A stretch of DNA of 64,000 bases from Micromonospora sp. HM5-17 (GTDB lineage: Bacteria > Actinomycetota > Actinomycetes > Mycobacteriales > Micromonosporaceae), in assembly GCF_003762835.1 (NCBI RefSeq), contig NZ_RJWA01000003.1, positions 744,001 through 808,000 on the forward strand, read 5' to 3'. Each line of letters begins with the position of its first letter. Within the stretch, counting starts at the first letter, position 1. This document shows, in pieces, positions 28,900 through 59,184 of the stretch. The position numbers and the translations under genes were made by a program. The notes beneath the pieces are model-generated. The model did not search any database, was not told the DNA's origin, and saw only the letters and a list, made by a program, of their open reading frames with translations.

Positions 28900-31359
28900 T
28901 CACCGGCGGCCGACCGGCGCCCGGTCCGTCGAGGGTGGGGTATTGCCGTCCTGGTCGGCGCCGTCTCGGCCGCGCGGTTCGGCGTTCGCGGCCCCCTGTC
29001 CGTTGCTGAGCCGCAGCATCACCAGCCCGCCTGCGACGGTCCGGCCCTCCGGGTCGGTCCGGGCCACCGTGCCGGCCGGGCAGGCCGAGTCGACCTGGTT
29101 GGGGTCGACCTCGACGCGGAACCCGGCGCCGCGCAGCACGGCGGTGGCGTCGTCGACCGACCGGCAGGTCACCGCCGGCACCGCGCGCTGGTCGCCGTCG
29201 ACCAGCGCGCGGTCCGGCTTCGGGAAGTCCTGCTTCGGCCTGCCGCGCATCGCGTCCGCCAACGTCTCGTAGACGGCCGGGTTCACGATGCCGTGGTCCA
29301 TGTTCTCGGTGGTCTCCGGCCAGTCCGGATTCGCCAGGATGCCGGCGACGGTCAGCGTGGTCGTGGTGGCGACCAGGCTCGCGGTCCGATGACTGTCCGT
29401 GGTGCCGGTCTTGCCGGCGACCGGGTGGCCGACCACCCGACGGACCGCCGATGCGGTCGCGCCGGCACAGCGGCCGTACGCCGACTGGTCGCCGACCGGG
29501 CAGCGTGCGGCGTCGATCGCGGCCCGCGCCACCGCCGGGTCCACGGCCTGGTCGCAGCGCGGCTTGGCCAGGTCCAGCGACGTGCCCGAGCGGTCCCGGA
29601 TCTCCTGGACCGGGATCGGCTCGCAATGCCGGCCGTCAGCGGCCAGCGTGGCGTACGCGGTGGCGAGGTCCAGCGGCGTGGTCGCCGATACCCCGAGGGT
29701 GAACGAGCCCCAGCCATCGGCCGACGCCTCGTCCTTCGCCATCGCGGCGTCGTTCGGGGCCCGGAACCGGATGCCGAGTCGCCTGGCGACGTCGACCACC
29801 CTGGCCGCCCCGACTCGCTCCTCCAGCGGAACGAAGTACGTGTTCACCGAGCGGCCGAAGGCGCTCCACATGTCGTGTGGGCCGCCCATGCCCGGGTGGT
29901 CGTTGCCCGGGCACCACCGTTCGGTGCCGGGACAGGCGGACTCGCTGCCGGCCGCCGCGGTGTACTTCGAGGGATACCGCTCCGGGGCGTTGATCTGGTA
30001 GCTGAGCGGGTAGCCCGCCTCCAGCGCGGCGACGACGGTGAAGATCTTGAACGTCGAGCCCGCCTGGTACCCGGTGATGTCCCCACCCCCGGTGAGCAGC
30101 GGGTTCGTCGTACGCGGATAGGTGCCCCGGATGCCGGCGGCAGCCTGGTCCGGGTTGCTCGAGATGGGGTTCTTCGGGTGCCTGGGATCGTCCAGCCCGA
30201 AGGTCCGGTTGGTGGCGAGGGCGCGTACCCGACCGGTGCCCGGTTCGACAACGGCCACCATCAGCGCGTCCTGCTCCCCGGTCGGCAGGTACTGCTCCAC
30301 GTTCCGGTGCGCGGCCTTCTGCACCGCCGGGTCCAGCGTGGTGACGATCCGGTACCCGCCGCCCTTGAGCTGCCGCTCCCGGTCGTACGTGGTCTGGCCG
30401 AACGCCGGCTGGTCCAGCCACCAGCGGTAGAGGAAGTCGCAGAAGAAGCCCCAGTCGTTGTGTGCCGCGCTGGTGCAGCCGTTGGCCGGGGCCTGGCCCT
30501 TGACCGTCAGCGGGGTGGCGAGCGCCGCGGCCTCCTCGGCCGGGGTGATCGCGCCGATCTCCCGCATCTGGCCGATCACCCAGTTCCGGCGCTCCAGGGC
30601 CAGCCGGTAGCCCGGCCCCTCGGTGTCCAGCGGGTCGTAGTAGCTCGGCGACTTCACCAGGCCGGCGATCATCGCCGCCTCCGGCACGGTCAGGTCCCGC
30701 GCCTCCTTGCCGAAGTAGAAGCGGCTCGCCGCCGCGACCCCGTACGTGCCGTGGCCGAAGGGCGCCATGTTGAGGTAGCGCTCCAGGATCTGGTCCTTGC
30801 TGAGCCGCTTCTCCAGCGCCGCCGCCTGGCGCATCTCCCGCAGCTTCCGGCCGGTGGTGTCCTCGTTGGCCGCCACCACGTCCTTCGGGTCGGTCGCCCC
30901 GTAGGTGAGCGACATCCGGACCAGCTGCATGGTCAGCGTCGAGGCGCCCTGCTTCGCCCCGCCCGTGCCGTTCGAGACCAGCGCCCGGAGGAACCCCTTC
31001 AGGTCGACGCCGGCGTGGTGGTAGAACGCGTGGTCCTCGGCGGCGATCATGGCGTTCCGCATCGCCGGGGCGATCTGGTCGAGGGGGATGTCCTGGCGGT
31101 TCTCGTCGAAGAAGCGGGCCAGCAGCGTCCTCCCGTCCGCCGCGTACACCTCGGTCGCCTCGGGGACCTGGGGGACCGTCAGCTCCGCGGGCAGGTCCTG
31201 GAACGACTCGGCACCGGCCTTCGCCGCCAGCCCGGACATCGCCACGGCGGGGAACGCCGCGCCGGCCACCACCAGCCCGGCGAGCAGCGAGCAGCTGAGC
31301 AGCTGGGTCGGCTTCGTCAGCCGGCGGCGGAGACGGACTCGGCGCAGACGAAACATCAT
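28900..31359 (-). CDS. Bifunctional penicillin-binding protein (GT51 plus transpeptidase) with PASTA
   Basis: 819-residue class A PBP that polymerises and cross-links peptidoglycan. One N-terminal membrane anchor (LLSCSLLAGLVVAGAAFPAVA). The glycosyltransferase domain has catalytic Glu in AAEDHAFYHHAGVD, plus QGASTLTMQLVR and KDQILERYLN. The transpeptidase has SxxK as STFK (GYQAGSTFKIF), SxN as SVN and KTGTT. A single PASTA domain ends the protein (VPAVTCRSVDDATAVLRGAGF). Extra Cys pairs (ESACPGTERWCPG, NGCTSAAHNDW) may form disulfides. ATG 31359 has GAGG five bases upstream. Confidence 0.88.
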   Translation of the reverse strand: MMFRLRRVRLRRRLTKPTQLLSCSLLAGLVVAGAAFPAVAMSGLAAKAGAESFQDLPAELTVPQVPEATEVYAADGRTLLARFFDENRQDIPLDQIAPAMRNAMIAAEDHAFYHHAGVDLKGFLRALVSNGTGGAKQGASTLTMQLVRMSLTYGATDPKDVVAANEDTTGRKLREMRQAAALEKRLSKDQILERYLNMAPFGHGTYGVAAASRFYFGKEARDLTVPEAAMIAGLVKSPSYYDPLDTEGPGYRLALERRNWVIGQMREIGAITPAEEAAALATPLTVKGQAPANGCTSAAHNDWGFFCDFLYRWWLDQPAFGQTTYDRERQLKGGGYRIVTTLDPAVQKAAHRNVEQYLPTGEQDALMVAVVEPGTGRVRALATNRTFGLDDPRHPKNPISSNPDQAAAGIRGTYPRTTNPLLTGGGDITGYQAGSTFKIFTVVAALEAGYPLSYQINAPERYPSKYTAAAGSESACPGTERWCPGNDHPGMGGPHDMWSAFGRSVNTYFVPLEERVGAARVVDVARRLGIRFRAPNDAAMAKDEASADGWGSFTLGVSATTPLDLATAYATLAADGRHCEPIPVQEIRDRSGTSLDLAKPRCDQAVDPAVARAAIDAARCPVGDQSAYGRCAGATASAVRRVVGHPVAGKTGTTDSHRTASLVATTTTLTVAGILANPDWPETTENMDHGIVNPAVYETLADAMRGRPKQDFPKPDRALVDGDQRAVPAVTCRSVDDATAVLRGAGFRVEVDPNQVDSACPAGTVARTDPEGRTVAGGLVMLRLSNGQGAANAEPRGRDGADQDGNTPPSTDRAPVGRR

Positions 31360-31542
31360 CAAGACCTCGGGATTGGGGCGGGTACGTCGGCGTGGGCGCC
31401 CGGCGCGCGCCGACAACCGTACGCGCGCCTCGGACCCTATTGATCCAGACGCCGCCCCCGACCACACGGTTGCGCAGGGGTGCGAGCCGAAGGTGACTCC
31501 TCCGTCACACCAATTCGTCACACCGGCCGGGACGGCCGGGTG

Positions 31543-31564
31543 CGCCGGGGCGACCGCCCCGGCG
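31543..31564 (-). terminator. Terminator after the DAHP synthase gene
   Basis: A 9-bp GC stem (CGCCGGGGC at 31543-31551 with 31556-31564) and a 4-base loop, 26 bases past the synthase stop on the minus strand. Confidence 0.5.
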
Positions 31565-31589
31565 GGCGCCGGCGGGCGGCGGGCCGGCC

Positions 31590-32678
31590 TCAGTCGGTCG
31601 TCGTCGCACCGATCGCCCGACGGGCCCGGACCGCCGCCGCCAGCTCCGCCAGCACCTGCTCGGTCTCGGGCCAGCCGAGGCACGCGTCAGTGATCGACTG
31701 TCCGTACGTCAGCGGCCGGGTCGGGTCCAGGTCCTGCCGCCCCGGGACCAGGAACGACTCCAGCATCACCCCGACGATGCCCCGCTGCCCCGCGGCGAGC
31801 TGCCGGGCCACCTCGGCGGCGACCACCGGCTGCCGGCGGTGGTCCTTGCCGCTGTTGTCGTGGCTGGCGTCGATCACCAGCCGCTCGGGCAGCCCGGCCG
31901 CGCGCAGCAGCGCGAGCGACTGCGCCACCGAGTCGGCGTCGTAGTTGGGCTTGCCCCGGCCGCCCCGGAGCACCAGGTGGCAGTCGGCGTTGCCCCGGGT
32001 GTGCAGGATCGCCGGTGCCCCGGAGACGTCGATACCGGGGAAGACGTGCGGCACCCCGGCGGCCCGGATCGCGTCGACGGCGGTGCTGACGCTGCCGTCG
32101 GGTCGGTTCTTCATCCCGATCGGCATGGAGAGCCCCGAGGAGAGCTGGCGGTGGACCTGGCTCTCGACCGTACGGGCGCCGATCGCGCCCCAGGCCACCG
32201 TGTCGGCGATGTACTGCGGGGTGATCGGGTCGAGGAACTCGCAGCCGACCGGCACGCCGAGCCGGAGCACGTCCAGCAGCAGGGCGCGCGCGGTGCGCAG
32301 CCCGGTGTTGACGTCCCCCGAGCCGTCCAGCCCGGGGTCGTTGATCAGGCCCTTCCAGCCCACCGTCGAGCGGGGCTTCTCGAAGTAGACCCGCATCACC
32401 ACCAGCAGGTCGGCGGCGTGCCGGTCCGCCGCCTCACGGAGTCGGTGGGCGTAGTCCAGGGCCGCGGCGGGGTCGTGCACCGAGCACGGGCCGACGACGG
32501 CGAGTAGCCGGTCATCCTCACGGTCCAGCACCCGGGCGACCGCTCGTCGGCCCTCCAGTACGGCCGTGGCGAGCGTGTCGTCCAGCGGCAGCTCGTGGTG
32601 GAGCAGCGCCGGGGTGGTCAGGGGCACGATCCGGTCGATGCGCTGGTCGCTGACCCGACTCAGTCCGGTGGTCGTCAT
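31590..32678 (-). CDS. aroG: DAHP synthase, type I (AroG-like)
   Basis: 362 residues. First enzyme of the shikimate pathway: PEP plus erythrose-4-phosphate to DAHP. Type I motifs are clear: LLAVVGPCSVHDP, MRVYFEKPRSTVGWKGL, GARTVESQVHRQLSSGLSMPIGMKNR and HDNSGKDHRRQP. Most actinomycetes depend on the unrelated type II enzyme, so this may be an additional, separately controlled enzyme. The start at ATG 32678 lies 71 bases after an intrinsic terminator that follows a Tyr/Trp/Phe leader peptide (32806-32865). Control by transcription attenuation in response to aromatic amino acids is therefore likely. Confidence 0.88.
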   Translation of the reverse strand: MTTTGLSRVSDQRIDRIVPLTTPALLHHELPLDDTLATAVLEGRRAVARVLDREDDRLLAVVGPCSVHDPAAALDYAHRLREAADRHAADLLVVMRVYFEKPRSTVGWKGLINDPGLDGSGDVNTGLRTARALLLDVLRLGVPVGCEFLDPITPQYIADTVAWGAIGARTVESQVHRQLSSGLSMPIGMKNRPDGSVSTAVDAIRAAGVPHVFPGIDVSGAPAILHTRGNADCHLVLRGGRGKPNYDADSVAQSLALLRAAGLPERLVIDASHDNSGKDHRRQPVVAAEVARQLAAGQRGIVGVMLESFLVPGRQDLDPTRPLTYGQSITDACLGWPETEQVLAELAAAVRARRAIGATTTD

Positions 32679-32748
32679 CGTTGTCCGTTTCCCTCCGCCG
32701 ACCTCGCCCGGGGCCGGCGCCCGGGAGCCGAGCCGGCTGCTCACATGG

Positions 32749-32773
32749 AAAAAGCAGGGACCCTGTCCCTGCT
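32749..32773 (-). terminator. Attenuator terminator in the aroG leader
   Basis: On the minus strand AGCAGGGA-CAGGG-TCCCTGCT followed by a T-run: an 8-bp stem, 5-base loop and U-tract, the clearest intrinsic terminator in the window. It lies 33 bases after the leader-peptide stop and upstream of aroG, so it would stop transcription before the gene. The self-complementary octamer AGCCGGCT occurs three times around it (32830-32837 in the leader ORF, 32776-32783 just before the stem, 32731-32738 after it) and allows exclusive alternative pairings. Confidence 0.75.
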
Positions 32774-32805
32774 TCAGCCGGCTCGCTGGATGTGGTGACG
32801 TCAGG

Positions 32806-32865
32806 TCATGGCCGAGTCACCGGCTCCGGAGCCGGCTGACCAAACCATCGATACGAGCGCGTCAC
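32806..32865 (-). CDS. aroG leader peptide with Tyr, Trp, Phe control codons
   Basis: A 19-codon frame, MTRSYRWFGQPAPEPVTRP. Codons 5, 7 and 8 are TAT, TGG and TTT, one for each aromatic amino acid; TAT and TTT are rare in this GC-rich genome. TATCGT (32873-32878) begins exactly 13 bases before the GTG, the leaderless spacing seen at many genes here. The downstream part (CCGGCTCCGGAGCCGG) can fold on itself. Together with the terminator and alternative pairing octamers this fits ribosome-mediated attenuation. Evidence is by pattern only. Confidence 0.6.
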   Translation of the reverse strand: MTRSYRWFGQPAPEPVTRP

Positions 32866-32968
32866 GGGGGGAACGATACCCGATGCGCCGCGGCGTGGGC
32901 CGGCGTCCAGGTGCTGGGAAGGGTCCCTCACCGGACAGAAGCTCTGAAAAGGGACCTTTCTCGCCGTC

Positions 32969-59111: not shown

Positions 59112-59184
59112 CGCGCCCGGCAGGATTCGAACCTGCGACCAACTGCTTAGAAGGCAGCTGCTCTATCCGCTGAGCTACGGGCGC
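59112..59184 (-). tRNA. tRNA-Arg (anticodon TCT)
   Basis: 73 bases on the minus strand. Acceptor stem GCGCCCG/CGGGCGC, D-loop AGCTCAGCGGATAGAGC, anticodon loop TTCTAAG giving TCT, T-arm GCAGGTTCGAATCCTGC. CCA is not encoded. It reads AGA (and AGG by wobble) codons. Confidence 0.95.

What the first reader, a model, noticed from the sequence alone, without database searches (positions are those of the whole stretch)
32700..32880. Probable aromatic-amino-acid attenuator in front of type I DAHP synthase
On the minus strand a 19-codon reading frame (MTRSYRWFGQPAPEPVTRP, 32806-32865) has TAT, TGG and TTT close together, one codon for each product of the pathway. A TATCGT box begins exactly 13 bases before its GTG, matching the leaderless spacing found all over the window. 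An 8-bp stem with U-tract (32749-32773) follows 33 bases after its stop and precedes aroG. The self-complementary octamer AGCCGGCT occurs three times (32830-32837, 32776-32783, 32731-32738) and allows exclusive alternative folds. Aromatic-responsive leader control of aro genes is known in Corynebacterium; a leaderless three-amino-acid leader in this family would be new to me.
Basis: partly seen in the sequence, partly recalled or inferred. Interest (0 to 1): 0.72.

Follow-up and report, generated by a model that had tools for sequence, protein, structure and literature searches.

The report
Aromatic amino acid sensor before aroG
Just ahead of the gene that starts aromatic amino acid synthesis sits a tiny 19-codon reading frame with tyrosine, tryptophan and phenylalanine codons and a transcription stop signal; relatives keep this layout, so it very probably lets the cell switch the pathway by sensing its own end products, as a related Corynebacterium element is known to do.

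Summary
Comparison with relatives turns it from a plausible guess into a strongly supported regulatory element. Of 149 family loci read upstream of aroG, 142 have a leader with Tyr, Trp and Phe codons, 5 keep two of the three, 2 have none. In all 141 leaders with a strict core, a TANNNT box lies 12 or 13 nt before an in-frame start, and the frame stays open and stops before a T-tailed hairpin whose sequence changes by compensatory pairs. The core Tyr and Phe codons are TAT and TTT, although these are 5% and 4% of such codons in window ORFs. Related leaders stand before aroG in Mycobacterium, Nocardia, Rhodococcus, Amycolatopsis, Kribbella and others.

It belongs with the AroR leader (Phe-Tyr-Phe) of Corynebacterium glutamicum aroF, so the kind is known; the Trp codon and the wide conservation appear to be new.

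The proposed switch is only partly supported. Octamers 1 and 2 covary as a stem; 2 and 3 do not. No fold that I computed prevents the terminator hairpin, and no conserved antiterminator was found. How a stalled ribosome would relieve termination is open.

The parts
32873..32878 (-). -10 box TATCGT; starts 13 nt before the GTG, as for a leaderless transcript
   Evidence: TANNNT 12 or 13 nt before an in-frame start in 141 of 141 family leaders with the core
32806..32865 (-). leader ORF MTRSYRWFGQPAPEPVTRP
   Evidence: conserved in frame in 141 of 141 core-bearing loci, 18-27 codons
32842..32853 (-). sensor codons TAT CGA TGG TTT (Tyr Arg Trp Phe)
32829..32838 (-). C1, first octamer region CAGCCGGCTC, inside the ORF just after the sensor codons
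   Evidence: pairs with C2; covariation
32820..32835 (-). P1, local hairpin CCGGCT/AGCCGG competing for C1
   Evidence: 88.5% of cells paired over 45 rows, weak covariation
32794..32821 (-). P2, hairpin GGTGAC/GTCACC; the leader stop codon lies in its loop
   Evidence: marginal covariation
32775..32784 (-). C2, second octamer region GAGCCGGCTG, partner of C1
   Evidence: 20 double-changed cells over 45 rows, 0 of 500 shuffles reach it
32749..32774 (-). intrinsic terminator (10-bp stem, 3-nt loop, five T) between leader and aroG
   Evidence: T-tailed hairpin in 141 of 141; 97.2% paired, 53 double-changed cells over 45 rows
32731..32738 (-). C3, third octamer, after the terminator
   Evidence: present, but C2:C3 pairing not supported by covariation
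31590..32678 (-). aroG, type I DAHP synthase, the regulated gene

Best explanation
A leaderless mRNA begins at or next to the GTG of a 19-codon leader ORF. A ribosome reads Tyr, Trp and Phe codons at codons 5, 7 and 8; shortage of the charged tRNA for one of them makes it stall there. Stalling just upstream of, or over, C1 changes whether C1 pairs with C2 next to an intrinsic terminator, and so sets how often RNA polymerase passes into aroG. With all three amino acids plentiful the ribosome runs to the stop codon in P2, the terminator works and aroG is down. Shown by comparison: the ORF, the codons, the promoter spacing, the stop before the terminator, the terminator, C1:C2. Inferred: start of the RNA, stalling, direction of control. 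Not resolved: the RNA change that would defeat the terminator.
For: Leader upstream of aroG in 147 of 149 family loci read: Y+W+F in 142, Y+F in 4, W+F in 1. Promoter spacing 12-13 nt in 141 of 141, background 0.0009 per position. Frame open, stop 21-46 nt before the terminator in 141 of 141. Order of aromatic codons changes (YRWF, FYWF, WYSWF, WYACFSW, YWRF, YFWF, WRFYF) while the amino acids stay; the codon between Tyr and Trp varies freely in threes. The last four residues are of 48 kinds in 141, so the peptide end is not selected. Terminator covaries. Precedent at the same kind of gene: C. glutamicum aroR-aroF, responsive to Phe limitation (passages of a review).
Against: Predicted probability of the terminator, by genus mean, is 0.93-1.00 in 16 of 18 genera (0.81-0.88 in g5, 0.74 in g34) with or without C1 masked, and no conserved segment complementary to its 5' arm exists (median z -0.19 over 45; 5 rows of one genus have a 7-bp candidate). 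Among 29 further representatives 13 have no T-tailed hairpin and 3 only a doubtful one. Trp or Tyr has been lost in a few loci and Phe in the Streptomyces leader. No expression data.
Confidence: 0.8

Rival explanations
1. The leader senses aromatic tRNAs, but the output is translation of aroG: C1:C2, C2:C3 and a hairpin of C3 with the region before the Shine-Dalgarno form a chain, and the terminator only sets a basal level.
For: C3 pairs downstream in predicted folds; leaders without T-tailed terminators exist in other families.
Against: Predicted Shine-Dalgarno accessibility does not change between states (Wilcoxon p 0.43 over 17 genus means, 133 of 141 loci with a recognisable Shine-Dalgarno); C2:C3 has no covariation.
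Confidence: 0.08
2. The terminator is constitutive and the ORF merely keeps ribosomes on the leader; no regulation by aromatic amino acids.
For: No antiterminator found.
Against: Tyr, Trp and Phe codons kept in changing order, and TAT/TTT in 137 of 137 relaxed matches against 5% and 4% in window ORFs.
Confidence: 0.06
3. The terminated leader RNA or its peptide acts in trans, as reported for the Sinorhizobium meliloti trp leader peptide peTrpL.
For: The element would release a short RNA; precedent seen only as a search listing with the start of its abstract (PMC7298713).
Against: The C-terminal half of the peptide changes freely and even changes frame (48 kinds of last four residues in 141).
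Confidence: 0.04
4. The conserved T-rich block is a protein-binding DNA site, not a coding sensor.
For: TAT..TGG..TTT is almost invariant as DNA within clades.
Against: Changes come in codons, the frame is open in 141 of 141, four g32 loci with the usual TGG changed to TGC have TGG codons on both sides, and the spacing to the promoter is that of a leaderless start.
Confidence: 0.02

Closest known systems
AroR leader upstream of aroF in Corynebacterium glutamicum (Neshat et al. 2014; paper not held, known here from passages of PMC4046766 and PMC11802643)
   Same: Upstream of a DAHP synthase gene (C. glutamicum has a TIGR00034 gene); short aromatic leader peptide (Phe-Tyr-Phe); attenuation; described as leaderless (recalled abstract). 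Two unnamed 2.4 and 2.7 Mb genomes in the family of G316 carry leaders MRMWRFYFSKAPEAETS and MRNWRFYFEWGSGR, holding F-Y-F, with a C1:C2-like complement and a hairpin with T-tail in the same order (read by eye).
   Different: Window leader is Tyr-Arg-Trp-Phe. In C. glutamicum Tyr supply is reported not to matter. The C. glutamicum leader itself was not held here, so no direct alignment was made.
Classical trp attenuators of Corynebacterium and Streptomyces (Seliverstov et al. 2005, PMC1262725)
   Same: Leader ORF with control codons, GC-rich terminator with poly-U, repeated self-complementary GGCC-like segments.
   Different: There the repeated segments make antiterminator and terminator; here the terminator stem has its own sequence and no antiterminator was found. 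The part of that paper read (part 1 of 3) reports Trp, Cys, Leu and Ile elements and says no conserved structures were seen for other pathways.
Leaderless cysteine leader ORFs of mycobacteria (Canestrari et al. 2020; title seen only in a reference list)
   Same: Leaderless short ORF in front of a biosynthetic operon.
   Different: One amino acid; no conserved terminator hairpin seen upstream of the mycobacterial cys operons (PMC1262725).

Membership tests
AroR-type leader of type I DAHP synthase genes | lies directly upstream of a type I DAHP synthase gene | tested here: met
   relatives
AroR-type leader of type I DAHP synthase genes | short ORF with clustered aromatic codons | tested here: met
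   composition Y,W,F rather than F,Y,F
AroR-type leader of type I DAHP synthase genes | leaderless transcript | tested here: inconclusive
   promoter spacing fits in 141 of 141; 5' end not mapped
AroR-type leader of type I DAHP synthase genes | homology to C. glutamicum AroR itself | tested here: inconclusive
   C. glutamicum leader not held; two unnamed 2.4-2.7 Mb genomes link the two by F-Y-F leaders
AroR-type leader of type I DAHP synthase genes | response to Phe limitation | not testable with these tools
   no expression data
Classical trp-type transcription attenuator | leader ORF with control codons and stop codon before the terminator | tested here: met
Classical trp-type transcription attenuator | intrinsic terminator before the structural gene | tested here: met
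   termination itself not measured, and the generic scan missed it
Classical trp-type transcription attenuator | antiterminator that excludes the terminator hairpin | tested here: not met
   thermodynamic folding only, so a kinetic or tertiary antiterminator is not excluded
Any Rfam 15 family | match at or above a gathering score in the element | tested here: not met
   below gathering scores only, to a microRNA family and an Enterococcus sRNA

The most novel reading that the evidence does not exclude
One four-codon sensor in a leaderless ORF reads the charging of all three end-product tRNAs of the shikimate pathway, kept across Mycobacteriales and beyond with nearly fixed rare codons TAT and TTT, while the output module differs by lineage (T-tailed terminator in Micromonosporaceae, Mycobacterium-type and Kribbella loci, weak in Streptomyces; none seen in most Nocardia, Rhodococcus and Amycolatopsis representatives), and termination is relieved without a classical antiterminator.
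Probability: 0.3. Interest if true: 0.72.

Novelty: new member of a known kind. Interest (0 to 1): 0.52.

Why it matters
DAHP synthase is the gate to aromatic amino acids and to many actinomycete natural products. A leader that reads Phe, Tyr and Trp together, with a leader of this kind found before aroG in 20 of the 21 family genera read, gives a simple handle on that gate, and suggests that the AroR element known from Corynebacterium is a widespread actinomycete device. The missing antiterminator makes a concrete open question testable. A type II DAHP synthase is also present, so aroG is not the only gate.

Tried and rejected
Antiterminator by folding: terminator probability unchanged when C1 is masked; search for segments complementary to its 5' arm, median z -0.19 over 45. 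A 7-bp candidate (TGCCTCG with CGAGGCA or TGAGGCA) stands in 5 of the 17 g30 rows, 10 bp with C2 in G119; not general, set aside.

Translational output: predicted Shine-Dalgarno accessibility unchanged (8 of 141 loci dropped for want of a recognisable Shine-Dalgarno).

C1:C2 without alignment (74 sequences): own pairs are stronger on average than mismatched ones (-29.9 against -27.6 kcal/mol; permutation minimum -28.6 in 2000), but the own partner ranked first in only 4 of 74 (median rank 21.5) and median z against shuffles was only -1.3; composition dominates, so I rely on the alignment test.

First P1 count used a register off by one; corrected. In one search the terminator finder took P2 for the terminator in some g4 rows; one search restarted it 60 nt downstream. 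The tool alignment A1 misaligned some terminators, so pair counts were made on a local-pair MAFFT alignment inside Python, and the count of structure pairs was not used.

Selection of rows: the 149 loci are all places listed except the second, equal-scoring copy of G095; they come from 148 genomes. One search found 189 of 220 genomes but cut its list, so the 41 weakest-matching genomes were not examined. The core pattern was chosen after looking at relatives, so '141 of 141' counts are for loci selected by that core. Folding and pair tests used 141 or 45 (thinned by shared 6-mers). An automatic criterion (TANNNT, 5-8 nt, start, 3 aromatic residues in 7) gave 143 of 149 in the family, 44 of 59 further loci (39 genome stretches, one of them of this family, and 20 named loci picked from the 80) and 19 of 20 loci of family f8, one per genus except two of g98. 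Of those 63 leaders 62 hold Y, W and F; the Streptomyces leader lacks Phe. The 16 misses: G318, G288, G306, G282, G300, G270 and G294 (f15), three divergent f16 genes, two Nocardiopsis, two Streptosporangiales-type MAGs (L017 does carry the sensor in a longer frame), G054 (YQRF leader) and G374 (leader with Trp and Phe, no Tyr).

Literature: the ten searches listed nothing that I could identify as this leader outside Corynebacterium; most subscription papers are not held. Neshat 2014 and Canestrari 2020 are not held; Wolf 2017 was seen only as a citation, and that it concerns Actinoplanes is recalled. Seen: PMC1262725 part 1 of 3; passages of PMC4046766, PMC8079986, PMC11802643, PMC13236596, PMC5784534, PMC7356990, PMC8914203, PMC4974804 and PMC4633059; PMC9094748 had no hits for my terms. 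PMC8079986 (S. lividans attenuators, Table 4) and PMC5784534 (C. diphtheriae) list leader peptides, none before a DAHP synthase gene in the passages seen.

Full report
What is there. On the minus strand of the window, upstream of aroG, a TATCGT box is followed after 7 nt by GTG and a 19-codon ORF MTRSYRWFGQPAPEPVTRP, a stop codon, a 10-bp hairpin with five T, and then aroG. In the 64 kb this is the only ORF of 10-40 codons with Y, W and F within four codons. A generic promoter and terminator scan found neither.

Comparison within the family. AroG was found in 7 of 7 genomes of the genus and 189 of 220 of the family. I read 149 upstream regions from 148 of those genomes. The core TAT(NNN)TGG(CGS)TTT, or its Cys variant, is in 141 of 149. 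Inspecting the other 8: G185 has Y, W and F in a changed order; G017 (YQRF), G107, G049 and G084 (YRRF) keep Tyr and Phe but have lost Trp; G066 keeps Trp and Phe; G067 and the second copy in G189 have no leader. So 142 of 149 have all three amino acids and 147 of 149 have a leader, in 20 of 21 genera.

The ORF is coding. In 141 of 141 a TANNNT box lies 12 (40) or 13 (101) nt before an in-frame start; background is 0.0009 per position. In 141 of 141 the frame is open and ends 21-46 nt before the terminator. Between TAT and TGG (or TGC) stand twelve different codons or, in 39 leaders, none or another arrangement. The aromatic codons change order between genera (YRWF, FYWF, WYSWF, WYACFSW, YWRF). 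In four of six g32 loci (G062, G094, G105, G113) the usual TGG has become TGC while TGG codons stand on both sides. The C-terminal half runs in different frames (QPARKPVTSP, QPAGGAGDSTMS) and has 48 kinds of last four residues, yet a stop always comes shortly before the terminator. That is what a ribosome-position device needs and not what a working peptide would show.

Codon choice. Allowing TAC and TTC, the relaxed core gave TAT 137 of 137 and TTT 137 of 137; in 30 long window ORFs (300 aa or more, GC3 above 0.85; not curated genes) TAT is 16 of 323 Tyr codons and TTT 14 of 352 Phe codons. The extra Phe codon just before Tyr in FYWF leaders is TTC in 16 of 25, so the rule holds for the sensor position. 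These counts are not independent, since the loci are related. Outside the family there are exceptions: TTC at the sensor in G356 and G280, TAC in G381, and TAC in place of the Phe codon in the Streptomyces locus.

RNA structure. On 45 thinned rows: terminator 97.2% of cells paired, 53 double-changed cells, none of 500 shuffles as high; C1:C2 87.9% and 20 cells, none of 500 as high on either measure; P1 88.5% and 4 cells (37 of 500 shuffles reach the cells); P2 78.1% and 8 cells (2 of 500); C2:C3 83.2%, reached by 73 of 500, and 5 cells, reached by 385 of 500, so unsupported. With one row per genus (18) terminator and C1:C2 still exceed all 500 shuffles; P2 does not. Related rows can exceed shuffles without structure, so C1:C2 is good, not final; an alignment-free test was weak for single loci. 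In genus g17 C1:C2 is 15 bp and differs in sequence from the window's.

What does not fit. A classical attenuator needs an antiterminator. The terminator hairpin is predicted at 0.93-1.00 in 16 of 18 genera (0.81-0.88 in g5, 0.74 in g34) whether the whole leader is free or C1 is covered by a ribosome on the Phe codon. No segment between C1 and C2 is complementary to the terminator's 5' arm beyond chance in general (median z -0.19). Octamer 3 is transcribed after the T-tract and cannot prevent termination. Predicted accessibility of the aroG ribosome-binding site does not change either. These are equilibrium predictions; kinetic effects, ribosome-RNA polymerase contacts and proteins are outside them. 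From the usual ribosome footprint (recalled) a ribosome waiting at TAT would not reach C1, so Tyr may matter least; Tyr supply is reported not to matter for C. glutamicum aroR.

Beyond the loci. A leaderless aromatic leader was found by an automatic criterion upstream of aroG-like genes in 44 of 59 further loci and 19 of 20 loci of family f8, including named Mycobacterium, Nocardia, Rhodococcus, Amycolatopsis, Antrihabitans, Williamsia, Tsukamurella, Kribbella, Streptomyces and Catellatospora; 62 of these 63 hold Y, W and F. Of 29 thinned representatives, 13 have a hairpin with at least 3 T in the next 7 nt (weak in G286 and Streptomyces), 13 none, and 3 gave a hit without a run of T.

The genome also has a type II DAHP synthase, as do 61 of 61 family genomes searched; I saw no comparable aromatic leader in the stretch printed in front of it (by eye). 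The strict sensor pattern occurs once in the genome.

Verdict. An AroR-type leader, new for this family and apparently undescribed outside Corynebacterium in the papers I could search. Control of aroG by aromatic supply is very likely.

Noticed in passing
L236-L238, L240-L248, L019, L021-L023, L025, L028, L030, L031, L251, L253 (upstream regions): Pseudonocardiaceae-type, Nocardia and Rhodococcus loci keep the sensor codons and a C1:C2-like complement but have a GAGCCGG...CCGGCTC-like hairpin without a T-tract: same sensor, different output module. Tested on representatives only, the rest by eye.
   Followed up: partly
L164, L239 (g12); L165, L170, L229 (g44): Trp codon lost (YQRF, YRRF) while Tyr and Phe codons stay: natural two-amino-acid versions of the sensor.
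   Followed up: partly
L152 (G066) and L283 (G374): Leaders with Trp and Phe but no Tyr (SRWFGW; HSWRF).
   Followed up: partly
L015 (Streptomyces sp. 150FB): Leader MSAVNRWYWRYEPAPGGAGGHVR has Trp and Tyr but no Phe, TAC standing where Phe is elsewhere.
   Followed up: no
L231-L235 against L238, L242-L244: Five genomes of family f15 carry three or four aroG-like copies; the copy most like the window's AroG lacks the leader in all five, and in the four genomes where I read a second copy that one has it.
   Followed up: no
window 28900-31683, minus strand: A long ORF resembling a penicillin-binding protein follows aroG on the same strand and could be co-transcribed (label from reading the translation, not from a search).
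   Followed up: no
L218 (G185): Leader with an apparent insertion in the sensor (FYWLQHFYF), all three amino acids kept.
   Followed up: no
window 59112-59184, minus strand: tRNA gene, the only Rfam match in the window at gathering threshold.
   Followed up: no
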